Assembly: GCA_028753945.1 (NCBI GenBank)
Contig: JAPNXP010000015.1
Coordinates: 2,790,001-2,854,000 of the forward strand
Origin: Hexactinellida sp. DTS-2022
Lineage: Eukaryota; Porifera; Hexactinellida
Direction of reading: 5' to 3'
DNA: 64,000 nucleotides
Position numbers and translations under genes: made by a program. Positions within the stretch are counted from its first letter, which is position 1. Every line of letters starts with the position of its first letter. Below are positions 18,294 to 61,847 of this stretch, in pieces. The notes below the pieces were generated by a model, which searched no databases, had not been told where the DNA came from, and was given only the letters and a program-made list of their open reading frames with translations.

Positions 18294-21200
18294 AAACCAC
18301 GACAACTTGAGTTAAAAATACGCCAGAAAAAATAGTATTTGAAATGAATATAGATAAGAAAATGCATGCAAAATGGAATAGGAAGATAAATATAGGTTTA
18401 AATGGATGGGTAAAAAATAGTAAATGCAAAATTTTTAAACAAAATTACTACGACGAGTAAAACAGTCCGTGTCCTTTTAACCACAGAAAGTCCCTTTAAC
18501 CGCTTCATGTCCCTTTAACCGCTTCGTGTCCCTTTAATCGTATCATGTCCGTTTAACCGCTACATGTCTCTTTAACCTCTTCGTGTCCCTTTAACCGCTA
18601 CATGTCCGTTTAACTGCTTCATGTCCCTTTAACCGCTTCATGTCCGTTTAACCGCTAAGTGTCCCTTTGCCATTACATATCCCTATAGGCAATAACCGAT
18701 ACATGTCCCTTTATTCGCTTCATGTCCGTTTAACCGCTACGTGTCCATTTAACCGCTACGTGTCCCTATAACCGCTACATGTCCGTTTAACCGCTTCTTC
18801 TCCCTTTGCCATTACATATCCCTATAGGCTATAACCGATACATGTCCCTTTAATCGCTTCAAGTCCCTTTAACCGCTTCATGTCCCTTTAACCGCTTCAT
18901 GCCCCTTTAACCGCTTCATGTCCCTTTAACCGCTACATGTCCGTTTAACCGCTACATGTCCGTTTAACCGCTACATGTCCGTTTAACCGCTACATGTCCG
19001 TTTAACCGCTACATGTCCGTTTGACCGCTACGTGTCCCTTTAACCGCTACATGTCCCTTTAACCGCTACATGTCCGTTTAACCGCTACATGTCCCTTTAA
19101 CCGCTTCATGCCCCTTTAACCGCTTCATGTCCCTTTAACCGCTACATGTCCGTATAACCGCTACATGTCCGTTTAACCGCTACATGTCCGTTTAACTGCT
19201 TCATGTCCGTTTAACCGCTTCATGTCCCTTTAACCGCTTCGTGCCCCTTTAACCGCTTCATGTCCCTTTAACCGCTACATGTCCGTTTAACCGCTACATG
19301 TCCGTTTAACCGCTACATGTCCGTTGAACCGCTACATGTCCCTTTAACCGCTACATGCCCCTTTAACCGCTTCATGTCCCTTTAACCGCTACATGTCCGT
19401 TTAACCGCTACATGTCCGTTTAACCGCTACATATCCGTTTAACTGCTTCATGTCCGTTTAACCGCTTCATGTCCCTTTAACCGCTTTGTGTCCCTTTAAC
19501 CGCTTCATGTCCCTTTAACCGCTACATGTCCCTTTAACCGCTTCATGTCCCTTTAACCGCTTCATGCCCCTTTAACCGCTTCATGTCCCTTTAACCGCTA
19601 CATGTCCCTTTAACCGCTTCATGCCCCTTTAACCGCTTCGTGTCCCTTTAACCGGTTCATGTCCGTTTAACCGCTTCATGCCCCTTTAACTGCTGCATGT
19701 CCCTTTAACTGCTACATGTCCCTTTAACCGCTACGTGTCCCTTTAACCGCTACATGTCCGTTTAACCGCTTGATGTCCGTTTAACCGCTTGATGTCCGTT
19801 TAACCGCTATATGTCCGTTTAACCGCTTCTTCTCCCTTTGCCATTACATATCCCTATAGGCTATAACCGATACATGTCCCTTTATTCGCTTCATGTCCCT
19901 TTTACCGCTACATGTCCCTTTAACTGCTGCATGTCCCTTTAACTGCTTCATGTCCCTTTAACCGCTACGTGTCCGTTTAACCGCTACATGTCCGTTTAAC
20001 CGCTTCCTGTCCCTTTAACCGCTGCATGTCCCTTTAACCGCCACATGTCCCTTTAACCGCTTGATGTCCCTTTAACCGCTACATGTCCATTTAACCGCTA
20101 CATGTCCCTTTAACCGCCACATGTCCCTTTAACCGCTTGATGTCCCTTTAACCGCTACATGTCCATTTAACCGCTACATGTCCCTTTAATCGCTTCATGT
20201 CCATTTAACCGCTCCATGTCCCTTTAACCGCTACGTGTCCCTATAACCGCTTCCTGTCCGTTTAACCGCTTCTTCTCCCTTTGCCATTACATATCCCTAT
20301 AGGCTATAACCGATACATGTCCCTTTATTCGCTTCATGTCCCTTTTACCGCTACATGTCCCTTTTAGCGCTACATGTCCCTTTAACTGCTGCATGTCCCT
20401 TTAACTGCTTCATGTCCCTTTAACCGCTACGTGTCCGTTTAACCGCTACATGTCCGTATAACCGCTTCCTGTCCGTTTAACCGCTGCATGTCCCTTTAAC
20501 CGCTACATGTCCATTTAACCGCTACATGTCCCTTTAATCGCTTCATGTCCCTTTTACCGCTACATGTCCCTTTAACTGCTGCATGTCCCTTTAACTGCTT
20601 CATGTCCCTTTAACCGCTACGTGTCCGTTTAACCGCTACGTGTCCGTTTAACTGCTTCATGTCCGTTTAACCGCTTCATGTCAGTTTAACCGCTACATGT
20701 CCGTTTAACCGCTACATGTCCGTTTAACCGCTACATGTCCCTTTAACCGCTACGTGTCCCTTTAACCGCTTCAAGTCCCTTTAACCGCTACATGTCCGTT
20801 TAACCGCTTCTTCTCCCTTTGCCATTACATATCCCTATAGGCAATAACCGATACATGTCCCTTTATTCGCTTCATGTCCGTATAACCGCAACATGTCCGT
20901 ATGACCGCTACGTGTCCCTTTAACCGCTTCATGTCCCTTTTCCGCTAAATGTCCCTTTAACCGCTACGTGTCCCTTTAACCGCTTCTAGTCCCTTTAACC
21001 GCTACATGTCCGTTTAACCGCTTCTTCTCCCTTTGCCATTACATATCCCTATAGGCAATAACCGATACATGTCCCTTTATTCGCTTCATGTCCGTATAAC
21101 CGCAACATGTCCGTATGACCGCTACGTGTCCCTTTAACCGCTTGATGTCCGTTTAACCGCTTGATGTCCGTTTAACCGCTATATGTCCGTTTAACCGCTT

Positions 21201-22472
21201 CTTCTCCCTTTGCCATTCATATCCCTATAGGCTATAACCGATACATGTCCCTTTATTCGCTTCATGTCCATTTAACCGCTACATGTCCCTTTAACCGCCA
21301 CATGTCCCTTTAACCGCCACATGTCCCTTTTACCGCTACATGTCCCTTTAACTGCTGCATGTCCCTTTAACTGCTTCATGTCCCTTTAACCGCTACGTGT
21401 CCGTTTAACCGCTACATGTCCGTTTAACCGCTTCATGTCCGTTTAACCGCTACATGTCCGTTTAAACGCTACATGTCCGTTTAACCGCTACATGTCCGTT
21501 TAACCGCTACGTGTCCATTTAACTGCTGCATGTCCCTTTTACCGCTACATGTCCCTTTAACCGCTACATGTCATTTAACCGCTACATGTCCATTTAACCG
21601 CTACATGTCCCTTTAATCGCTTCATGTCCCTTTACCGCTACATGTCCCTTTAACTGCTGCATGTCCCTTTAACTGCTTCATGTCCGTTTAACCGCTTCAT
21701 GTCCGTTTAACCGCTTCATGTCCCTTTTTCCGCTACGTGTCCCTTTAACTGCTTCATGTCCGTTTAACCGCTACATATCCGTTTAACCGCTACATGTCCG
21801 TCTAACCGCTACGTGTCCGTTTACCCGCTACATGTCCGTTTAACTGCTTCATGTCCGTTTAACCGCTTCATGTCCGTTTAACCGCTTCATGTCCGTTTAA
21901 TCGCTTCATGTCCGTTTAACCGCTTCATGTCCGTTTAACCGCTTCATGTCCGTTTAACCGCTTCATGTCCGTTTAATCGCTTCATGTCCGTTTAACCGCT
22001 TCATGTCCGTTTAACCGCTTCATGTCCGTTTAACCGCTTCATGTCCCTTTAACCGCTACATGTCCCTTTAACTGCTTCAATCCGTTTAACCGCTTCATGT
22101 CCGTTTAACCGCTTCATGTCCGTTTAACCGCTACGTGTCCCTTTAACCGCTTCATGTCCCTTTAACCGCTACGTGTCCATTTAACTGTTGCATGTCCCTT
22201 TAACCGCTACGTGTCCCTTTAACTGCTGCATGTCCCTTTAACTGCTTCATGTCCCTTTAACCACTTCGTGACCTTTTAACCTCTTTTTCTTCATTCATTC
22301 ATTCTCACATGTATTTTTTAATTCTTTAATTTGTTTTCATTTATTTTAGTTGAACTATTTTTTTCTTTGTTTCCCTACTTATTTTTCATTTAGTTTTGCT
22401 TGTACTATTTTAATTTGATTAAATTTACTATTTCTAAATCTCGTGTCCATTTAACCGAAGTTGTCGTGGTTT
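18294..22472. mobile_element. Inverted-repeat-bounded element filled by a 19-bp satellite
   Basis: The left end AAACCACGACAACTT (18294) and the right end AAGTTGTCGTGGTTT (to 22472) are perfect inverse copies. Just inside the right end is GTGTCCATTTAACCG, which is the repeat unit of the interior satellite. AT-rich shoulders of ~150 bp lie on both sides of the array. No transposase frame is present. A clear target duplication is not visible (CCTACTAT left, CCTAAAGT right). Class unknown. Confidence 0.6.
18468..22280. repeat. 19-bp satellite (CATGTCCGTTTAACCGCTA)n with higher-order insert
   Basis: About 200 tandem copies vary mainly at CCC/CCG (TCCCTTT or TCCGTTT), GCTAC/GCTTC and CATG/CGTG. 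About seven times the register is broken by a ~60-bp variant block beginning TCCCTTTGCCATTACATATC and containing CCCTATAGGC (near 18665, 18805, 19835, 20275, 20815, 21030 and 21210). This shows expansion by multi-unit duplication. Low-complexity frames here are not genes. It is not a CRISPR array, because there are no unique spacers. Confidence 0.9.
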
Positions 22473-26788: not shown

Positions 26789-27973
26789 TTATTGACAAGA
26801 AAAAATTTGTAGTTCGTAGTTATTATTCTCAGACACAATTATTAATTTCATATTTTCAGTTAGAACTATTCCTCTAGGGCCATAAAGCATTCCCACTTCA
26901 TGTCCTGGTTCCCCTTTAGTGTGGAGGTGTGTCCCTTCTTTCGAGAATATTCTAACTTCATTATTCAACCATTCACTGATCAGCAAATTCTGTTTTCTGT
27001 CCAAACAGAAGAAGCGAGCTACTCCTATCTGCATTCCCATACCCCATGTGATTAGGGAGCGTATCTTCTCTCCTGCGTGAGAGAATACGAGTATGCAGGG
27101 AGAGCCATTACATAGCACGTACACCTCATCTGGTGTCAGTTTAACGTCTTTCGGGTGTTTCATTGTTTGGTGCCTTATGGATCTTTGGAAGTGTAGGGAG
27201 TCATCTAGAACTTGGATTATGTGGTTGTAATAACCTGCTACGAACACATCTCCGTTGGTAGAGACGGAGAGTCCGCTAGGCCAATTGAACTGTCCCACAC
27301 CAGATCCCTTGCTCCCTAGGCTAGCGACGAGACGCATGTCAGCCTCTATTTTGAATTGGAACACAGCGTCTACTCCTGTGTCAGTCACATACAGGTTGTC
27401 TCGATGGATCGCTATACCGTATGGCGCTCTCATATCTTGGTTTGTGAAAGTATTCAGGAATTCGCCTGTCTCCGAGAAGATTGAGACTCTACAGGAACCT
27501 GATTCAGCGACATAAATTAGGTTTGTGTTCTCATCGATAGCGACACCTTGAGGATTCCAGAGCTCTCCAGGAGCATGTCCTTTCTTCCCGACAGCTACAA
27601 TCGGTCTCATCTCTTCATATCGGGGTACAACGGGCACCTCCTCCTCGACTACCTCTCCCACACCTGCGATCACCTGCTCCAGGTGTCCACAGGTGCCTCG
27701 GAACACCACGCGTGTCTCTGGCTGGGCTACCCTCACCTCTGCTAGCGCTTCTTCTAGTTCCGCTAGGATTCGCTCCTGGGTCTCTCTCAGTTCGTTCATT
27801 TGGAGACGAGCCTCGGTTTCGGTTTTCAGTGCGATCAGTTCTTCTTCTTTTCGCGCGCGGGCTATGGGCCTAGCGGCTATTTGGTCACGTGTGTCGCGGT
27901 ATGTGGTTATGAGTGCCACTCGTCGCTGCTGGACACACATAATTATGCGGTCGAATAGTTGGTGTATTTCCAA
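26789..27973 (-). CDS. Coiled-coil NHL-repeat protein (TRIM-NHL-like, no RING or B-box)
   Basis: About 394 residues. Residues ~15-95 form a charged, heptad-like coiled coil (Arg/Glu-rich, with ETEARLQMNELRETQERILA). From ~125 to the end there are about six NHL repeats with the usual G-x-F/L..P.G.A.D....Y..D..N..I.IF spacing (for example GELWNPQGVAIDENTNLIYV). NHL propellers bind RNA or protein. There is no RING or B-box, so ubiquitin ligase activity is not indicated. The frame stays open upstream of 27973 (a TTG codon) for about 22 codons, including KIVVRFPDPIHPVDPVEL, but contains no ATG before a TAA. The first in-frame ATG is about 12 codons downstream of 27973. The gene may have a 5' exon, a lost start, or be a decaying duplicate. 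Confidence 0.75.
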   Translation of the reverse strand: MEIHQLFDRIIMCVQQRRVALITTYRDTRDQIAARPIARARKEEELIALKTETEARLQMNELRETQERILAELEEALAEVRVAQPETRVVFRGTCGHLEQVIAGVGEVVEEEVPVVPRYEEMRPIVAVGKKGHAPGELWNPQGVAIDENTNLIYVAESGSCRVSIFSETGEFLNTFTNQDMRAPYGIAIHRDNLYVTDTGVDAVFQFKIEADMRLVASLGSKGSGVGQFNWPSGLSVSTNGDVFVAGYYNHIIQVLDDSLHFQRSIRHQTMKHPKDVKLTPDEVYVLCNGSPCILVFSHAGEKIRSLITWGMGMQIGVARFFCLDRKQNLLISEWLNNEVRIFSKEGTHLHTKGEPGHEVGMLYGPRGIVLTENMKLIIVSENNNYELQIFSCQ

Positions 27974-28038
27974 CTCGACAGGGTCTACGGGGTGTATCGG
28001 ATCAGGGAATCGAACGACAATTTTGTTATTATTTGCAA

Positions 28039-28670
28039 GTTAGCTAGTTAGTGCTATTTAAAGGAAAGTAGTTTGTTAGTAGAATGCTATAGAGAATGTG
28101 TCTCGTATCTTATAGCAGAGCTAGGTGGTGGAACTGAGTGGAATGTGGCATCTGTTTGTGTGCCGCCTCTTCTGATGCACATGGTGACTCCATCCAGTCA
28201 GGAATGTAGTGAAAGGAAATACTTACATTTGTGAATAATTAGTTAATGCAGAGACAACTTTGCTAGGATACCAAATGGCTCAAATGGAATGTGGCACAAC
28301 CCAGTGCAAAGTACTAAATTACTTTCCTAGCTTAGTATCAAATTTCTTACAAAAACATTTTATTTTATATAAAATAATTGTTATCGTTATTTACTATTTA
28401 TTTATCATTTTTTAATTCTATTATTATCTTATTCTTATGGTGTGCATTTCATTTCAATTTTATAATTACAGTCAGGTCTGCTTATTGTGAACAAGATTTC
28501 GTCTGCTTAAGAGTTGTTTAGCCTTTGGTTATTATCTAAGTATATAAACAAAGAAATGTAGGCTATTTTGAATTCATATTGACAATATTGTTCAGTAACG
28601 CTTCAAAGTGAAACTATTCAAATTTCTATGATTATCTTGCATTTTTCTGATTCAAACACTTACAACCATA
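28039..28670. other. Spacer between the NHL gene and the KDZ-like transposon
   Basis: No gene is supported. The end of a dispersed MITE (CAGTCAGGTCTGCTTATTGT after TA at 28467) starts at 28469. Confidence 0.4.
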
Positions 28671-28679
28671 TAGTAAAAG

Positions 28680-28885
28680 GTCGAGTGTGCATGCACATAC
28701 AGTCGAGTGTGCATGCACATACAGTCGAGTGTGCATGCACATATAGTCGAGTGTGCATGCACATATAGTCGAGTGTGCATGCACATATGGATAGTCGAGT
28801 GTGCATGCACATATAGATAGTCGAGTGTGCATGCACATATAGATAATCCAAAAAGTATGCACATATAGAGTAGAGTGTGAGTAAA
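28680..28885 (+). repeat. Left terminal array of the KDZ-like transposon
   Basis: Seven near-identical units of GTCGAGTGTGCATGCACATA spaced at 22-26 bp are followed by a degenerate unit ending TAGAGTAGAGTGTGAG. Each unit has a TGTGCATGCACA palindrome. Such arrayed subterminal units are plausible transposase-binding sites (inference). Confidence 0.85.
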
Positions 28886-28949
28886 CAGATTATAAATAAA
28901 TAATAATTTAATATTTCTGTTATTTATAATTCTTATTGTTTGTTATTCT

Positions 28950-29118
28950 ATGTCACATGAAATTATATCTACATTTGTAACTATTCCCCAAGCGAAGAGG
29001 AAAAGAAGTGATATTGAAGAAACAACAATCTCTCAGTTGAGCATCAGATCACAAATTAGGGGCGAGGATAATGTTTCTACTGAGCTCCTAACCGATATAG
29101 AAATTAATCCCAGAACAA
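28950..29118 (+). CDS. Possible first exon of the KDZ-like transposase gene
   Basis: The frame from ATG 28950 codes for 56 residues with a basic stretch AKRKRSD that could be a nuclear signal. It meets a donor-like AA|GTAAAT at 29119. The reading phase does not join cleanly to the next clear exon at 29312, so it may belong to a missing intermediate exon or not be coding. Confidence 0.35.
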
Positions 29119-29311
29119 GTAAATACATATAAATAATATTCGAGTAAAATCTTAATTAAATTAAACGTAGACTGAATTCTATAAATTCGATGCGAATATA
29201 CTGTGCCAAAATTGGCACTGTTATACTTGTGTATTACACATATAACAAAGTGTCAATTTGGGCTTGTAATCATTTTCGAGAATCTCGTATTCAAAAATTA
29301 ATCTTTTAAAG

Positions 29312-32298
29312 CTTATTATTTCGAATCGCAATGATTGTCAAGGGCCCACTTTAGAGAAAATTAGTTCTCCACCTAGTTTTTTTTGTCCACCTAGAGAACA
29401 TTTCAATGTATATAAATTAATGGTCTATTATTTAGGAAATGATTATAGCGCCTGTTTAACTTCGCTTGATGAGGAAGAGGAATTAACGGTAACAATTTCT
29501 ACCTTTGATCAATATATTTCACTCCTGATTGTCGAATCAAAGTCCTGGAAGCTTGATGATTCGCAATTTGCAGTAGTCGCTGATTTTGAATTCAATAAAG
29601 CAGGTAAATTATTATATTTTCTTTAATACTTTACTGTTGCATGTTGATTATAGTGATCTATAAAATCTTTAGGAAAAGTAAAGCTAACTAAAAGAAAGGT
29701 TATTATTGATGTCACTGCTAGAAAATGTTTAGAATGTGATCACAATTGCATCCATTATGAAGCTTTTGAACATTGTTCAAACACTGAATAGTGAATATCT
29801 TAAAATATGTCAGCCTAATTATCTCAAGAATTATAAATTCTTCATTCTCAATCAATCAACCATCTTTCTAGATGATAATGAAGGTTTTCATTGTTTTTAC
29901 AATGATGAAATGAAGTGGTTCTGTGTCACATGTTTGGGAAAGTGTAATAAATCAGCTACCTTACAAACCATTTTACCAACATGTAATTTCGATTTAACCA
30001 CAGTTTTCCCAAAAGAGATTGATTATTCCACAATATCCACTCAACCTATACCCGTATTTCTTGACGAAAAAATGGCTAGTGTTTACAAAGAACAACAACA
30101 ATGCCAATTTCAGAACTTGTCTGCTGAATTACTTACAGAAAAAGAGTCTTGTGAACACGGATATCAATTTAACACTGAAAACAACGTTCGTTTAGAGAGA
30201 AAAGGAATAATTGTGTACACTGCAAACGCTGTTATTGAACTTGCTGAACATAAAGGTATGTTGGATCGTGGATTCTAATATATTAAAAATTTATCTAATA
30301 TTTTGTATTTTTCCTTATTATTCGATAGTCTATAGTTCTGTATGCAATGGCCCATGCAACTGTAAAGCATCTTTCGACGGGAGATCCTGTCTACTACTTA
30401 ATATCAATAACCGCTACTTCCTACATTACGACACACTCTATGAGTATAGCGAATTCATGACTTCATCGAGAAACACACTTCGTGGGTATTTAAGGTTCGT
30501 CCAGATTATAAAATAGGTATTTCTCAGTCATAGTTGTCTATTGTTCTAGTGACTTTCTAATTTTATAGAGCGAAAAACAGAACCCAAGAGAGGCTTGGAA
30601 GGAAAGACAGATATCAGTACCATATTTTCCAACACGGATGGAATGCATATTTAAGGATGATTGATCTTAACTATCAAACAAGTTTCACTTGTCCTACTTG
30701 CAAGGACAACCCCGAAGTAGTAATAATGGATGGGATTACACTAGGAACTTTGAAACGAATACCTGAGACCCCTCATTTAATAGATGAATTTCAAAACTTC
30801 AGCGTGATCCCGACTTCCAATCGTGTATTTATTCCAAGCGCTAAGACAAGGAAGATGTTGAAAGAATTTAGTTCTATGGGGTTAAGAAAGAGCACTTTCA
30901 ATGAAATGTTAACTTGTATCGCGGTTGAAGAGTTTGTTAATTATATTTTATACACCACTGTGGAGTGCAATGGTTGGATTAAGATTAATGAAACTTACCC
31001 TGGTGTGAATGCTGTTTTAACTCGATTAAGTTATCCATCTCCATTATCTGGAATATTCCAATTTTCTTTACTAACGAAAACAGAGCGAATACTTTTAGTA
31101 AAATTATCAAATGGAGAATTTCTTTCCACAAACGATCTCCACAAAATATTCATCAAGATAAACTCCGTCCAACTGCTCTTTGACTCGCTTCCTCCAAGAG
31201 TAAATGAGGGAAAACATGTGTCTTTGAACCATATTATTCAACCACTTTTGACAATAATTCTAAGGAAAATTGATGCTCTATTTAAACATCCTACAAGAAA
31301 ACTTGTTGAGTATTCGTCTGAAACTAATGACTACTTCAACTATTTTCCAGCCTTTCCGGTCCACTACAAGTATGTAATGTGTTTTAACTTTTAAATTAAT
31401 TCTTATAGATTTAAATACCTTACAAGTACCAAAATATACGTATACTGGTGAAATACATTTGTATCCTTGTTAATCTAATCACTCACCTACTACTGTACAT
31501 AATGGATAATGTAGTGATATTGGATATAGTGATATATTGGATAATAGTGATAATTTATCCCCAATCCCCACCATTATCACTATATCCAATACATATGTAC
31601 TGTAACAACAATAAAATGCACATATTATTAATTAATACTGATGTGTTAGATTTATTTACACTTAACTTTATAAATGTCTTCTTATTTGAATTCATTTTGA
31701 GAGGATCAAATTTTATTCTATAGATTACCAAAATATGAGATTGGAAAAGCAGATGCAACTTTCCAATGTTCAAAGATCTACCCCAAACACAATAAATTCT
31801 CTCCAGGAATGCTAGTTCTTACATGTCAGCACAAGATTTGTTATGGTTTTGAGATTTTAAGAGAACGAGAGTCCACGGTTATAGTATATAACATGCTAAT
31901 CAGTATTTTCAAGAAACCTCCAAAGATTATCATTTATGATAATGCGTGCAATTTGCATACTACATGTCTAATGAGGTAACATTTAGATTATTAATTTCGA
32001 AGCTACTATACTTAATAAATTGACTAAATATTGTTCTTTGTTTAGGGACCCTACACTATTTCGCGACACTGCGTTTTTAGTTGATAGGTTTCACTCTGTG
32101 AACCATAAATGTAGTCCATCATACTCAATGAAGTCAATTCAAAGCGAACATATCAAAAAGATCAACTCACAAGCTTGTGAACAGATTTTCTCTGTACTAA
32201 GACGGATCTCCACGCAAATAGCATATATGCGAGTAGAGAACGTTTTCTTTAATACTAGATATTTTTTTAGCTATTTTAAATGCACAAATGATATCTAA
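29312..32298 (+). CDS. KDZ-superfamily-like transposase, multi-exon
   Basis: Exons inferred by GT-AG signals and phase: 29312-29603, 29673-30255, 30329-30494, 30569-31369, 31724-31975 and 32046-32298 (stop). All junctions from 30255 onward keep frame. Cys-rich segments come first (CLECDHNC, CVTCLGKC, CNGPCNCK). Then come GWNAYLRMIDLNYQ, FTCPTCKDNPEVVIMDGITL (first catalytic Asp), PPKIIIYDNACNLHTTCLMR (second Asp), FLVDRFHSVNHKCS and INSQACEQIFSVLRRIS (candidate catalytic Glu). This order and these motifs are those of KDZ transposases and HMGXB3-like relatives, presumed RNase H-fold DDE enzymes acting in the nucleus. The reading frame changes at ~29789-29815 (CSNTE then stop; QPNYLKNYKFF resumes in another frame), which no ordinary intron explains, so this copy may be broken. 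The intron 31370-31723 carries a MITE. Confidence 0.8.
31493..31602. mobile_element. 110-bp MITE in a transposase intron
   Basis: The ends CTGTACATAATGG (left) and CATATGTACTG (right) are inverted copies flanked by TA. The interior repeats CACTATATCCAAT words. It lies wholly inside the intron between 31369 and 31724, so splicing could remove it. Confidence 0.6.
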
Positions 32299-32383
32299 AT
32301 TTAATTAGTAATGAAATCTCAATATTAGTTATAAAGTGATATAATATTATGTATTACGTAATGACAAAAGATTAAATATAAAT

Positions 32384-34288
32384 TTAATTGCAAATAGGAC
32401 AAGCGAACAACATTATTTGCTCAGTGTTGTCTAGAAAACCAACACATGGCTTGTGAAACCATTTTGTGCACTTAGTGCACTCGACCATATTTCTGTACGC
32501 AAATTGGGGTAATCTACATAGGCACCAGATTTCAATGTTAATGGGTTCAGATTTTTGCATTGTCATGATGCCTTGTGGTTTAGGTACTCTGATGGTGGGA
32601 AAAGGTTCCAAAGTTTCATTTTCGATGCACTTTCGCAAATGTTTGCGCATATTCGATTGGCGCCACCGATTATTAACGGGATCATCTCCAGACGCTATCG
32701 CGAGGCAGACTGCTGCAGCAAAAACTCCACAGTCTGCTCCACCACGTTGTTGTTGTATTGGCATAACAGTAACTGTGAGAGAGGGTTCGTTAGTGGCATA
32801 TAACAGTGCTAGTTGAACATCCAGTTCCTCGCTAGTACGTCCTGAAAACGCTGAGTCATATAAGTAGACACCGTTAGCAGTTTTTCTGGAGCATACCCAG
32901 TGCAAGTTTCCATCGTGATGGATTTGTAAGCTGTTTTGTGGAGGCTTTACAAACTCACGATTCTACAAGAAAATATCGATCAGTCTCATTTCCACAAACA
33001 TTTCAATTAATCTCGTCTACAATTACTGCAGAATAAGCTACTTAGATTAATATTAATTTACCTTAGATAAAATTGTGTCTTGTAGTCCAGACAGACTTGG
33101 ATAGGATACTTTTAGAAGCTCCTAAATGTAACATGGATGATTGTAATTTGTAAACAAGAAAGAAAGGACAGGTATTTAAGAAATCACTTACCATGAAACA
33201 GTTTATGGAAGCTCCAGATAAAAAAGCATTAGTATTGGAGAGCTGTTTGATAAATTCTTCTTTAACTCTTTTGTCAATTACAGTAAATTTTATCTTCAAT
33301 GGGGAAATTGGGCGCGTATTTATTAGTTCAGCCAGCGTGGGTGAAAATGGAGGTGTAGAATCTGACATTTGTGGCGAAGTGCTCTCGGGTTGCTGATTAC
33401 AATCTTTAGTCATAGTGGAAGATTCACAAGTAGATAGCCCAGGTAAAAATGAATCATTTGATGATACGTCATATGTATTATTGAGAATATTTTGTTTTAG
33501 AGATCCAATTTGGACTGAAAACAGACCCGTTTCAACACGGTTATCTAATTGCAAGTCGTCATCATAATTGGTTTCCATGTTGTCATCATATGGCAGTTCT
33601 GTTTCAAAATTGTCGTCATATGGCAGTTCTGTAATACTTCTGTTTCCAAGTTGTCATCATATGGCAGTTCTGTTTTAAAATTGTCGTCACAAGGCAGTTC
33701 GGTTTGCAAGTTGCCAACCGGGCTCGTTCGTAGCGAATCGGTATTTGCATTGAAATATCTATATGCATTTATGATCTGAATAAGGTGTGTTCTCTTAAAT
33801 GTTTTTCGAGCAACGTTTGAGAAAGGGATGTCTTCTGGCCACCAAATGGGTTTTTTATCTTCTTTACCCCAAAAATTTCGAGTTATCCCTAGAAAAATTG
33901 TCATTGATTAAGTTCGGAATTAAATATAGTATAGTCTGCACAGTAAAAACTTAACATTACAAAACATACCTACTGATTTTTGAATTAACCACGATATAAT
34001 TCTTCGTAATGTGTTCACATTGCATCCAGTTAGATCACTCTCTATTTTCGCAATCATTTCGACATCGTGTGCTGGGGTAGACTCTAGTGAAATAGGACAA
34101 TTGGCAAGACTCTTCCAAATCACATCCTTATTTGCATTTATAAAATCAGTGAAGGGACTATTTGCTAAAATAGATAGACCCCCTTCCCAGGTAAAAACAG
34201 CACCGATTCTTTGGCCAGTTACCTGCTTAAACCTAGATAAAGTTCTTTGGAGCATCTGTCTCGCATTACCTTTCGTCATCTGTGGCAT
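32384..34288 (-). pseudogene. NRF-1/EWG-like DNA-binding domain + Ulp1-type protease + PHD finger, frameshifted
   Basis: Exons inferred on the minus strand: 34288-33970, 33888-33192, 33121-33062 and 32962-32384, all GT-AG. The first ATG in frame (MPQMTKG) is at 34288. Residues 1-~160 resemble the NRF-1/Erect-wing DNA-binding region, with the near-invariant KPIWWPEDIPFSNV at ~120-133. A stretch of 10-residue repeats (x-TELPYDDN-x-E) follows. Then comes a C48/Ulp1-like protease with His (GNLHWVC), Asp (YLYDS), Gln (IQQQRGG) and Cys (GGADCGVF) all present. The C-terminal PHD finger is Cys4-His-Cys3 (IWCLCRL, VECTKCTKWFHKPC, FACPIC). An 11-nt insertion at 33632-33642 within the 30-nt repeats breaks the frame; without it exon 2 would join exons 1 and 3 in phase. 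The product may direct the element to GC-rich sites and remove SUMO-like modifiers; this is inference. An intact total length would be ~547 residues. Confidence 0.75.
33560..33712 (-). repeat. 30-nt coding tandem repeat inside the minus-strand transposon gene
   Basis: About five imperfect copies of a unit starting GAAACAGAACTGCCATATGA encode ten-residue acidic repeats. The 11-nt insertion at 33632-33642 lies between two copies and looks like a slippage event. Confidence 0.75.
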
Positions 34289-34544
34289 AATGGTAATGGT
34301 GGTATGTAATATGTATGTTAACGGGCTTTGAATCAATGAAGCAGGTCACGAAATTTCTAAATGTGTCTACAGTAGATGGATATGTCTTTATACATATTTA
34401 CATAATATGATATTGCAAGGATGCACAATTGTCAACAAGTGCCTGTGCCTAATTCAATCAAACTATTAACTATTAAAAAAACACGCTTGTGGTGTGTTTG
34501 TCAAGAATTACGAGAGCTAAAATGTGTATGCAAACTCGACTTTA

Positions 34545-34633
34545 TGTGGATACACACTCTATATATGCATGCACACTCGACTATCTATATGTGCATGCAC
34601 ACTCGACTATCCATATGTGCATGCACACTCGAC
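34545..34633 (-). repeat. Right terminal array of the KDZ-like transposon, inner block
   Basis: Three copies of the inverse unit TATGTGCATGCACACTCGAC follow a degenerate copy ACACACTCTATATATGCATG that mirrors the inner left end. Its last CACTCGAC (34626-34633) is one half of the target duplication of the hAT MITE. Confidence 0.85.
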
Positions 34634-35219
34634 CAGTGTTGTAAATCAAATCAAATATTTCAAATATTTGATTTGATTTGATTTGATTTAAGAGAATTTG
34701 AATTATCAAATGATTTGATTTGATTTGATTTGAAATTATTTGAATCCTCAAATGATTTGATTTGATTTGATTTGAAAATATTTGAATTCTCAAATGATTT
34801 GATTTGATTTGATTTGAAATTATTTCAAATCATTTTCAAATCATTTTCGAATCATTTTTCAAATCATTTTCAGATCATTTTCAAATAATATTCGGTAAAT
34901 CATTTTCAAATCGTTTCCAAATCGCTTTAGTATAATTTCACGTCATTTTCAATTCAATTTCAAATATATAAGATCATTTTCAAAATTTCTATACATTTTG
35001 ACAGTGGTTCAGAAATGATTTGAAAGTTTCAAATATTTCAAATATTTGATTTGATTTGATTTGAAATTATTTGAAATTTCAAATATTTGATTTGATTTGA
35101 TTTGAAATGATTTGAAATCTCAAATGATTTGAAATGATTTGATTTGAAATAATTTTAAATCTAAAATGATTTGATTTGATTTGATTTGAGAAAAAAAAAA
35201 TGATTTATTTACAACCCTG
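34634..35219. mobile_element. hAT-type MITE filled by (TTTGA)n, inserted in the KDZ terminal array
   Basis: The ends CAGTGTTGTAAATCAAATCA (left) and TGATTTATTTACAACCCTG (right, inverse) match well. The 8-bp duplication CACTCGAC is perfect (34626-34633 and 35220-35227) and consists of transposon-array sequence, so the hAT MITE inserted after the KDZ element. Nearly all of the interior is TTTGA/TTTGAAAT repeats, a motif already present at the inner end of the terminal repeats. Confidence 0.88.
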
Positions 35220-35293
35220 CACTCGACTATATGTGCATGCACACTCGACTGTATGTACATGCACACTCGACTATATGTGCATGCACACTCGAC
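35220..35293 (-). repeat. Right terminal array of the KDZ-like transposon, outer block
   Basis: Three inverse units of TATGTGCATGCACACTCGAC end at CTCGAC, 35293, followed by TTTTTATTA that mirrors the left flank. This is the outer boundary of the element. Confidence 0.85.
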
Positions 35294-35296
35294 TTT

Positions 35297-36355
35297 TTAT
35301 TACCTCTTACAACAATTATTTTCATTTATTGTGAGTATCGTAACTACAGAGCTTGATCTATATATGATCTATATGCCTGAAGTCTAAAATTACTAAATAC
35401 ATTTAAGAATTTTCCTCAAAATGGGTGCATGTATGTATAGGTTTTGACTTTGGAGAAAAATATCTGTTTATTTATATTATAATACTGTTTATCTATATAT
35501 ATATACACTCCATTCAGCAGGAATCTTAAATAGTGGTTATATAACAATGTTAAGTAAGTAATAATATGCAATGGTTTAATCTTAAGTTGTTATACGTTAG
35601 GTATTAATATGAAGATTTTTATTATGAACAAGCCCTACGGTCCCAATTTAACAACTTACATAGGATTTGTATTAACGGTATCGCCGAAAAGACGAAAATG
35701 GTAATTTTCAGTGGAAATAACATTTCGAGGCAATAATTTTTTTTCCTGCTAATTTATTCTTAGGCATGTCTTGTTTCATGCTAGGTGCTAAAAAACATTT
35801 TTTGGTCAATAGGAATGCACTTATGCGTCATAATATAGCTCCATATTTGGTCATTTTCCGAAATAACTCGGATTTTTTTGAAATTTTGTTATATCAATGC
35901 CCTGACATAGATCATTGTTTTTATGATGAAAAAAGCTTCAATATTTATAAATTATTGATTTTATCATCTCCACATTGGAATTCTTACTCCATATCATTTC
36001 CATGGTTACCATTGCCATAGATTGTAATGTTTGACACAATTCAAAAGTGTAATGTGTAATGTGATTGTAGTATTGTTGTAATTAGCGTATATTGAAAACC
36101 TGATACTATAGTGTAATTATACAACTGAAATCTGATGCTTTATTTATTGTTTCAGATGTCACAATATCTTATTATATAAATCATAGTCGTTTCAAATAAC
36201 TTTATGTAATAATAGTATGTGAAATATGCTACCATTTTTGCATTGTGTTATGTGGCTGACTATATTAATCTGGCAGAAATAGATATGTGGTTGATCATAG
36301 TTATATGGTTGACAATAGTTATGTGGTTGATTTAGTTTTTGCTATAAATAGTAGA
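35297..36355. other. AT-rich spacer
   Basis: No supported gene. ~35605-35690 is an inverted copy of the dispersed repeat at 25940-26034. The end of the stretch has several TATGTGGTTGA words (36245-36330). Confidence 0.4.
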
Positions 36356-36359
36356 GCAA

Positions 36360-37165
36360 ATGTAAATGGGGCCGGGAATGGGCTGGGTAGAGCCGGGAAT
36401 GGGCCGGGTAGAGCCGGAGTGGGCCATGAATGGGCCAGGTAGAGCGGAGTGGGCCGGAAATGGGACGCGTAAAGTCGGGAATGGGTCGGGTAGAGCGGAG
36501 TGGGCCGTGAATGGGCCGCGTAGAGCCGGGAATGGGCCGAGTATTGCCGGAGTGGGCTGGGTAGAGCGGGGAATGGGCCGAGTAGATTCGGGAGTGGGCC
36601 GAGTAGATCCGGGAGTGGGCCGAGAAGATCCGGGAGTGGGCCGAGTAGATCCGGGAGTGGGCCGAGTAGATCCGGGAGTGGGCCGAGAAGATCCGGGAGT
36701 GGGCCGAGAAGATCCGGGAGTGGGCCGAGAAGAACCGGGAGTGGGCCGAGAAGATCCGGGAGTGGGCCGAGAAGATCCGGGAGTGGGCCGAGAAAATCCG
36801 GGAGTGGGCCGAGTAGATCCGGGAGTGGGCCGAGAAGAACCGGGAGTGGGCCGAGTAGATCCGGGAGTGGGCCGAGAAGAACCGGGAGTGGGCCGAGTAG
36901 ATCCGGGAGTGGCCCGAGAAGAACCGGGAGTGGGCCGAGTAGAACCGGGAATGGGCCGAGTAGAACCGGGAGTGGGCCGGATAGATCCGGGAATGGGCCG
37001 AGTAGAGCCGGGAGTGTGCCGGATAGAGCCGGAAATGGGTCGGATAGAGACGGAAATGTGGCAGGTAGAGCCGGGAATGGGCCGAGTAGAGCCGGGATGG
37101 GCTGAGTAGAGCCATAATTTGGCCGGGTAGAACTGGGAATGGGCCGCGTAGAGCCGGGTGGGTCC
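36360..37165. repeat. 21-bp minisatellite, unit GGGCCGAGTAGATCCGGGAG(T)
   Basis: About 38 tandem copies, most regular between 36590 and 36950 and more diverged at both ends. The unit length is a multiple of three and lacks stops in several frames, so long low-complexity frames appear on both strands (heptad-repeat proteins). There is no start context, splice signal or codon bias favouring one of them, so I treat the array as non-coding. Confidence 0.9.
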
Positions 37166-61753: not shown

Positions 61754-61847
61754 CATATATTGAAAAGTCGAGTGCGCATGCGCATAGGGTCGAGTGCGCA
61801 TGCGCACTCGACCCTATGCGCATGCGCACTCGACTTTTCAATATATG
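61754..61847. repeat. 94-bp perfect palindrome built from KDZ-like terminal units
   Basis: The palindrome runs from CATATATTGAAAAG to CTTTTCAATATATG around a core GTCGAGTGCGCATGCGCA and its inverse. The unit equals the KDZ terminal unit except that CG replaces TG/CA at two sites. It looks like two fused termini or a minimal derivative of that transposon family. It lies ~30 bp upstream of a splice-acceptor-like TTGTTTTAG of the next gene. Confidence 0.75.

What the first reader, a model, noticed from the sequence alone, without database searches (positions are those of the whole stretch)
32384..34288. Transposon-borne fusion of an NRF-1/EWG-type DNA-binding region with a Ulp1 protease and a PHD finger
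Seen: KPIWWPEDIPFSNV preceded by a region of matching layout to NRF-1, then His/Asp/Gln/Cys of a Ulp1-type protease (HWVC, YDS, QQQRGG, ADCGVF), then a C4HC3 PHD finger, joined by GT-AG introns all in compatible phase. Known: Ulp1 proteases accompany KDZ/Zisupton elements; NRF-1/EWG proteins bind GC-rich palindromes such as GCGCATGCGC. I do not recall this domain trio described. Notably, the transposon's terminal unit contains TGCATGCA, and the sister palindrome at 61754-61847 contains GCGCATGCGC, which matches the NRF-1 consensus. The element's own NRF-1-like domain may therefore read its own terminal arrays.
Basis: partly seen in the sequence, partly recalled or inferred. Interest (0 to 1): 0.92.

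Follow-up and report, generated by a model that had tools for sequence, protein, structure and literature searches.

The report
Transposon carrying an NRF1-like DNA binder
A family of jumping genes in this animal-like genome encodes a protein that joins an NRF1-type DNA-binding region to a SUMO-protease-like part and a histone-reader-like finger, and the ends of many of these jumping genes are rows of the very DNA word that the animal gene switch NRF1 reads, so the element most likely recognises its own ends with a relative of that transcription factor.

Summary
The window holds a 6.6-kb KDZ DNA transposon (28667-35305, 8-bp target duplication) with two convergent genes: a KDZ transposase (+) and an accessory gene (-) encoding an NRF1/EWG-type DNA-binding region, a Ulp1/SENP-type protease and a PHD finger. 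NRF1, KDZ and PHD parts pass Pfam cut-offs; the protease rests on catalytic residues, relatives' profile matches and fold. The window copy of the accessory gene is frame-broken in exon 2; some relatives are open. One search scored 150 related stretches genome-wide. The striking result is in the ends. Terminal arrays carry one 10-bp palindrome per 21-26 bp unit at a fixed offset from the terminal inverted repeat: in several families the exact NRF1 consensus GCGCATGCGC, in others variants (GTGCATGCAC here). Genome-wide, 57 of 62 termini have CATG at that offset and 24 of 62 the exact NRF1 site. The pattern fits the NRF1-DNA structure: the R206 equivalent and the base it reads stay fixed, while residues 242/244 and their bases vary. 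Residue-base covariation is suggestive only. Binding is inferred. No description of such an element appeared in the paper listings seen; a eukaryotic protein database could not be queried.

The parts
28659..28666 (.). target site duplication, left copy CTTACAAC
   Evidence: identical 8-mer at 35306-35313
28667..35305 (.). KDZ transposon with NRF1-Ulp1-PHD accessory gene, 6639 bp including a later insert
   Evidence: inverted arrays plus 8-bp duplication
28667..28686 (+). left terminal inverted repeat (20 nt before the first palindrome), a variant of CATATATTNAAAAGTNC
   Evidence: family motif
28687..28836 (+). left terminal array, 7 GTGCATGCAC palindromes spaced 22 or 26 bp, upstream of the transposase gene
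28950..32298 (+). KDZ transposase gene, several exons; start codon inferred; apparent frame change near 29780 in this copy
31724..31975 (+). KDZ transposase domain, first exon
   Evidence: spliced with the next exon: PF18758 33.8 bits, cut-off 26.6; borders
32046..32298 (+). KDZ transposase domain, last exon with stop codon
33970..34288 (-). accessory gene exon 1: NRF1 dimerisation-domain-like part and helix with the R206 equivalent
33192..33888 (-). accessory gene exon 2: KPIWWPEDIPFSNV (NRF1 linker2 with the N242 equivalent) and linker; frame-broken near 33640 in this copy
33062..33121 (-). accessory gene exon 3 (ELLKVSYPSLSGLQDTILSK), start of the protease part
   Evidence: borders; like exons in L012, L016, L017, L022
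32384..32962 (-). accessory gene exon 4: Ulp1-type protease core and PHD finger, stop codon
34565..34626 (-). right terminal array, inner part, 3 sites (one ATGCATGCAC)
34634..35219 (.). hAT-like non-autonomous insert inside the right array, 8-bp duplication CACTCGAC at 34626-34633 and 35220-35227 (not part of the element proper)
   Evidence: superfamily by recalled look of its ends only
35233..35286 (-). right terminal array, outer part, 3 sites (one GTACATGCAC)
35287..35305 (-). right terminal inverted repeat
35306..35313 (.). target site duplication, right copy CTTACAAC
61754..61847 (.). tiny non-autonomous sister: inverted repeat CATATATTGAAAAGTCGAG around three GCGCATGCGC sites (the L016 family unit)

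Best explanation
The element is a KDZ-class transposon whose second gene encodes its own end-binding factor. SHOWN: the factor's N-terminal region is homologous to the DNA-binding region of NRF1/EWG and is joined to a Ulp1/SENP-type protease and a PHD finger; both ends of the element are arrays of a 10-bp palindrome that equals, or is a near variant of, the NRF1 site GCGCATGCGC in the families where arrays were read, one per about two helical turns, at a fixed distance from the terminal inverted repeat. INFERRED: the factor binds each palindrome as a dimer through the R206-type helix and the WWP-N linker, as NRF1 does, coating both ends in phased rows. It thereby marks the ends for the transposase and, since the arrays lie about 115 and 280 bp upstream of the (inferred) starts of the two genes, probably also controls their transcription. 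The tethered protease then removes SUMO locally (most likely from silencing factors or the transposase), and the PHD finger, which resembles H3K4me3 readers, ties the complex to active chromatin. Families have drifted to variant palindromes along with variant recognition residues.
For: NRF1 homology. Protease: 52, 56, 69, 70, 76. PHD: 8, 56, 76. Transposase: 75. Genome-wide family: 11, 12; NRF1-like exons beside 28 of the 30 Ulp1-PHD loci held with flanks (L011-L040; none in L029 and L040). Arrays: pairs of GCGCATGCGC 8 to 20 bp apart are counted at 150 places against 0 for the reversed-pattern control, pairs of GTGCATGCAC at 18 against 0; shuffled array units give the exact NRF1 word in 1 of 68,000 and any core palindrome in 272 of 68,000. 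Anchored on the terminal motif, 8 of 9 families have a perfect palindrome at offset 21-30, the ninth matches in 8 of 10 bases; genome-wide 57 of 62 termini have CATG at offset 24-27 and 24 of 62 the exact NRF1 word. Structure logic from PMC10810270: R206 reads C6/G9, N242 reads G3, R244 reads C4 and G5. Here the R206 position is Arg in 18 of 18 aligned sequences and base 6 is C in 20 of 20 families tabulated, while bases 3, 4, 5 and residues 242 and 244 vary. Residue 242 ranks 3rd of 137 columns for association with base 3.
Confidence: 0.78

Rival explanations
1. The arrays are bait for the host's own NRF1: the transposon borrows the host factor as a promoter activator, and its own NRF1-like domain binds something else or competes.
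For: The host has an NRF1 gene with the R206 and N242 equivalents and Lys at 244; NRF1 activates unmethylated retrotransposons in mouse germ cells (PMC12420836, abstract). GCGCATGCGC families could be read by both proteins.
Against: Several families carry sites changed at C4 or G3 (GAGCATGCTC, GTGCATGCAC, TCGCATGCGA, CCGCATGCGG), changes that weaken human NRF1 binding 4- to 7-fold singly and more when symmetric (G3 to C was modelled there, not measured), yet keep perfect palindromes in phased arrays. These families were found through their own NRF1-like or Ulp1 genes.
Confidence: 0.12
2. The palindromes are bound by the KDZ transposase itself through its N-terminal zinc-binding motif, and the resemblance to the NRF1 site is chance.
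For: The transposase gene has a conserved C..C...C.H type motif, and transposases usually bind their own ends (recalled).
Against: The exact 10-bp NRF1 consensus stands in arrays of elements that encode an NRF1-type domain; it arises in 1 of 68,000 shuffled units. The R206 equivalent is invariant and so, with the bias stated above, is the base it would read.
Confidence: 0.07
3. The NRF1-like region is a degenerate remnant of a recent capture of this host's NRF1 gene, without a role at the ends.
For: Only 34 bits to the profile against 176 for the host gene.
Against: Over 42 aligned residues the window domain has 21 identities to human NRF1 but 11 to the host's own NRF1 (human-host 16). The Arg is kept in 18 of 18 divergent sequences.
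Confidence: 0.03

Closest known systems
NRF1 / EWG / P3A2 transcription factors (Pfam PF10491)
   Same: DNA-binding region with LR helix and KPIWWPEDIPxxN linker; palindromic site GCGCATGCGC; predicted helix-strand-strand-helix layout of exon 1 as described for the NRF1 dimerisation domain
   Different: carried by a transposon and fused to a protease and a PHD finger; R244 replaced in 19 of 20 families; sites occur as terminal arrays of the gene's own element
KDZ transposons (Kyakuja, Dileera, Zisupton; Pfam PF18758)
   Same: KDZ transposase domain over cut-off, accessory gene beside the transposase, 8-bp target duplication (8 bp for Zisupton is recalled)
   Different: accessory gene with an NRF1-type domain; fungal Kyakuja in PMC12730594 (passages seen) have 7-bp duplications, no TIRs and TET/JBP accessory genes, and that text has no occurrence of Ulp1, PHD or NRF
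En/Spm TnpA-TnpD transposons (recalled, not tested)
   Same: two-protein logic: an accessory protein binds subterminal repeats for the transposase and controls the element's promoter
   Different: unrelated proteins and repeats
Ulp1/SENP SUMO proteases
   Same: catalytic His-Asp-Gln-Cys order and predicted fold
   Different: with a C-terminal PHD finger and an N-terminal DNA-binding region; Pfam score of the window copy below cut-off

Membership tests
NRF1/EWG family (PF10491) | profile score over the curated cut-off | tested here: met
   34.4 bits, cut-off 23.5, window spliced N-terminus; L016 26.0, L012 31.5; L022 at 21.6 falls below
NRF1/EWG family (PF10491) | base-reading residues R206 and N242 | tested here: met
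   window has both; Arg in 18 of 18; Asn242 in 13 of 20 families, residues read by hand into
NRF1/EWG family (PF10491) | base-reading residue R244 | tested here: not met
   Ala in the window; Arg in 1 of 20 families; Lys in the host's own NRF1
NRF1/EWG family (PF10491) | MADS-like dimerisation domain | tested here: inconclusive
   predicted helix-strand-strand-helix, mean pLDDT 70.4; SRF/MADS chains among weak, non-significant matches
NRF1/EWG family (PF10491) | binds GCGCATGCGC-type palindromes | not testable with these tools
   such sites are present in the element's own arrays; no binding assay
KDZ transposons (PF18758) | KDZ transposase domain over cut-off | tested here: met
   33.8 bits, cut-off 26.6, after joining two exons; the single exons stayed below
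KDZ transposons (PF18758) | element ends with target duplication | tested here: met
Ulp1/SENP peptidases (C48) | His, Asp, Gln, Cys in order | tested here: met
   invariant in 12 of 12
Ulp1/SENP peptidases (C48) | Pfam score of the window copy over cut-off | tested here: not met
   13.4 of 20.7 bits; 12 of 12 copies match at E up to 0.1, best 2.4e-5
Ulp1/SENP peptidases (C48) | fold | tested here: met
PHD finger | C4HC3 ligands and profile over cut-off | tested here: met
   26.6 bits, cut-off 24; six ligands invariant, the last two lost in L024 only by the alignment of 12; PHF2 first in the PDB
PHD finger | H3K4me3 binding | not tested
   only resemblance to PHF2, PHF8 and BPTF; their ligand is recalled

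The most novel reading that the evidence does not exclude
The animal transcription factor NRF1 and its genome-wide site GCGCATGCGC descend from a transposon's end-binding protein and its terminal repeats (or both descend from one ancient end-binding module), so that NRF1's CpG-rich, methylation-sensitive site is a fossil of a KDZ-type terminus, and the present elements form a natural library of NRF1-type proteins matched to altered palindromes.
Probability: 0.25. Interest if true: 0.95.

Novelty: new variant of a known kind. Interest (0 to 1): 0.85.

Why it matters
NRF1 is a major activator of animal promoters whose way of binding DNA was called novel by those who solved it (PMC10810270), and I know of no settled account of its origin. 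A transposon family that encodes an NRF1-type domain and whose ends are rows of NRF1 sites gives a concrete origin hypothesis, and some twenty natural protein-site pairs with which to work out the recognition code. It also offers a two-gene transposition system in which end binding, SUMO removal and chromatin reading would sit in one protein, a testable model of how a transposon might counter SUMO-dependent silencing.

Tried and rejected
Considered and rejected: (a) chance match of a 14-residue motif: rejected by the spliced profile score and the NRF1-only significant PDB match. (b) Frame of exon 2 rescued by a further intron: the extra 11 bases lie inside the repeat unit, and open relatives have no intron there. 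(c) A simple one-residue recognition code: Lys at 244/245 with C at base 4, and Tyr or Phe at 244 with A at base 5, look good by eye, but the grouping is post hoc, the pair L035/L038 contradicts it and the Mantel tests are weak, so I claim only positional agreement. Searches used 20 families each but not the same 20: L038 is in 66 only (dropped from 82 for its broken frame), L079 in 82 only; L081 and L082, whose sites are mixed, were coded as mixtures in 66 and by one letter in 82; L007 and L093 were left out of both as redundant or lacking exon 2. Residues and sites in both calls were typed by hand. (d) Fold search of exon 1 gave no significant match and NRF1 chains were not among the rows listed. 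(e) A profile of exon 1 alone finds no NRF1 in the PDB. (f) In one search the terminal-motif search over all sequence held gave 22 rows; 6 that do not begin with CATATATT were dropped as chance matches; of the other 16, one per family (9) went into; the motif itself was seen first in array-bearing flanks, so searches are the fairer test. (g) Paper searches on KDZ, Ulp1, NRF1/EWG/P3A2 and transposons listed, in the parts shown (at most 20 papers each), no paper on an NRF1-type domain in a transposon; PMC10027918 on transposon-derived transcription factors has no occurrence of NRF1, P3A2, KDZ or Zisupton. The PNAS paper that named KDZ is not held.

Full report
WHAT THE WINDOW HOLDS. The window is a stretch of an unnamed 112-Mb genome in 18 contigs. 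The genome has its own NRF1 gene (C1:12370499, PF10491 176.5 bits, open frame of 510 aa), so it is probably an animal or a close relative; that is inference. Positions 28667-35305 are one mobile element: inverted arrays at both ends, flanked by an 8-bp direct repeat CTTACAAC at 28659-28666 and 35306-35313. An unrelated insert (34634-35219, duplication CACTCGAC) splits the right array. Inside are two convergent genes.

TRANSPOSASE. On the plus strand the exons 31724-31975 and 32046-32298, joined at their GT-AG border, match the KDZ transposase profile at 33.8 bits (cut-off 26.6), E 3.5e-8; unspliced pieces had stayed below the cut-off. Upstream, a zinc-ligand-like motif C..C...C.H, open in relatives such as L042, is followed in the window copy by a frame change near 29780.

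ACCESSORY GENE. On the minus strand: exon 1 33970-34288, exon 2 33192-33888, exon 3 33062-33121, exon 4 32384-32962, all introns GT-AG. The first 176 residues match PF10491 at 34.4 bits, E 2.3e-8, cut-off 23.5, along profile positions 76-177 of 213. Against PDB sequences the only significant matches are NRF1 (8k3d E 2e-8, 8k4l E 5.2e-8). In an alignment of 12 copies of exon 4 the protease residues and six zinc ligands are invariant; the last two ligands are missing in L024. The model is closest to SUMO proteases (pLDDT 69.9); the best PDB relatives of the finger are PHF2, PHF8 and BPTF. Pfam C48 is below its cut-off for the window copy, while 12 of 12 copies match at E up to 0.1, best 2.4e-5. 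The window copy is broken in exon 2 by a frame change in the ELPYDDN repeats; relatives such as L022 (538-aa model) and L024 are open through exon 2.

A LARGE, DIVERSE FAMILY. One search scored 150 stretches related to exon 4 (239 candidates; some stretches are pieces of one gene, and low-ranking ones in long open frames may be other Ulp1-type genes). One search lists 142 stretches related to a transposase exon. Many pairs lie 1-2 kb apart in convergent order, read off the two lists. NRF1-like exons were found in 28 of the 30 exon-4 loci held (L011-L040; none in L029 and L040). Exon 1 of 17 other sequences is 33-59% identical to the window; the R206 equivalent is Arg in 18 of 18.

THE ENDS ARE ROWS OF NRF1 SITES. 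Human NRF1 binds GCGCATGCGC as a dimer; R206 reads C6/G9 and stacks on the central T, N242 reads G3, R244 reads C4 and G5 (PMC10810270; abstract, passages and section 18 read). The terminal arrays have this word. In L016, L019, L021 and L024-L027 the array unit contains GCGCATGCGC. Genome-wide, pairs of this word 8-20 bp apart are counted at 150 places with 0 for the reversed pattern, with quite different spacers in different families (neighbouring pairs of one array count apart). On contig 1, the only contig listed there, they flank six exon-4 hits and also stand alone. The window family has GTGCATGCAC (pairs at 18 places, 0 control; sites). Other families have GAGCATGCTC, GCACATGTGC, GGACATGTCC, TCGCATGCGA, CCGCATGCGG and GCGCTAGCGC.

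CONTROLS. Of 110 array rows of period 17-30 in all sequence held, 34 have a 10-bp palindrome with a C-A/T-A/T-G core: 32 rows, partly redundant, are of the terminal type by my judgement and 2, both of L038, are an unrelated AT-rich unit; 10 further rows have some other 10-bp palindrome. Shuffling the 34 units gives a core palindrome in 272 of 68,000 and the exact NRF1 word in 1 of 68,000. Anchoring ends on the terminal motif instead: in 9 loci, one per family, the ten bases at offset 21-30 are a perfect palindrome in 8 and match in 8 of 10 in the ninth (choice of loci told under Tried and rejected). Genome-wide the motif CATATATTNAAAAGTNC occurs 62 times (reversed control 0); 57 of the 62 have CATG at offset 24-27 and 24 the exact NRF1 word at 21-30. 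Many of these ends belong to near-identical copies, so they are not 62 independent cases. The unit length of mostly 21-23 bp is about two turns of DNA, so successive sites would face the same side (inference).

DOES THE VARIATION FIT NRF1 GEOMETRY? In the 20 families tabulated base 6 is C in 20 and base 7 A in 19; bases 3, 4 and 5 vary; residue 242 is Asn in 13, Cys in 4, Lys in 3; residue 244 is Ser in 10, Lys in 5, Tyr in 2, and Ala, Thr and Arg once each. Arrays were recognised partly by their core, which favours a fixed base 6; the figure least open to this is 57 of 62. One variant, GCACATGTGC of L080, is a change at which NRF1 itself still binds (about 4 uM, against about 0.3 uM for the consensus). 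Residue 242 ranks 3rd of 137 alignment columns for association with base 3, 4th for base 4, 29th for base 5; two exon-1 or exon-2 columns rank above it for base 3, and 244/245 were not scored. The overall residue-site correlation is weak (Mantel p 0.04; with relatedness removed p 0.08), and the Cys242 group is probably one clade. I call covariation suggestive only.

WHERE NO SITE WAS SEEN. By my own grouping, by eye, 28 families with the NRF1-like region were looked at. In 22 a site was read, with these limits: L017 a single site; L022 and L039 only through the genome pattern searches; L079 a half-site only; L081 and L082 imperfect; L015 on the far side of the gene. In 6 none was seen (L012, L036, L085, L088, L089, L092), in some because little flank is held.

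MECHANISM. Arrays at both ends, upstream of both genes, together with an NRF1-type domain, point to an end-binding accessory protein that also acts at the element's promoters. The fused SUMO-protease-like part and H3K4me3-type PHD finger suggest local removal of SUMO-dependent silencing and contact with active chromatin; this step is inference from domain knowledge. Sites without CpG, such as the window's, would escape the methylation sensitivity of NRF1 (PMC12420836, abstract); also inference.

ORIGIN. Over 42 residues the window domain shares 21 with human NRF1 but 11 with its own host's NRF1, while human and host share 16. That speaks against a recent capture from this host. Whether NRF1 came from such elements or the reverse is open, since no eukaryotic protein database could be searched.

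Noticed in passing
window 34634-35219: AT-rich hAT-like non-autonomous insert made of ATTTG-type repeats, inserted into the right terminal array with 8-bp duplication CACTCGAC
   Followed up: partly
window 61754-61847: 94-bp near-perfect inverted repeat with three GCGCATGCGC sites and the terminal motif of the L016 family: a minimal non-autonomous element
   Followed up: partly
G000:C1:14820615 and 14824941; C1:15117184; C1:11492501; C1:3942018: GCGCATGCGC pairs with no exon-4 match nearby: deleted or different elements that use the same site
   Followed up: no
L009 / L090 (G000:C4:1202311-1207402): two different element families lie head to head with their arrays about 0.6 kb apart
   Followed up: no
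window 29700-29800: transposase zinc-ligand motif followed by an apparent frame change in this copy; open in L042 and others
   Followed up: partly
window 18490-22281: 19-bp minisatellite of about 198 copies (GTCCCTTTAACCGCTACAT)
   Followed up: no
window 36371-37158: GC-rich 21-bp minisatellite (CCGGGAGTGGGCCGAGTAGAT), about 31 copies in its main part, 1 kb from the element
   Followed up: no
window 26792-28039 minus: NHL-repeat protein gene (Pfam 76.5 bits) near the element's left end
   Followed up: no
window 33548-33907 minus: weak match of the WWP region to the fungal YDR124W-like helical domain (PF11001, E 0.011 to 0.019), a possible deeper relative
   Followed up: no
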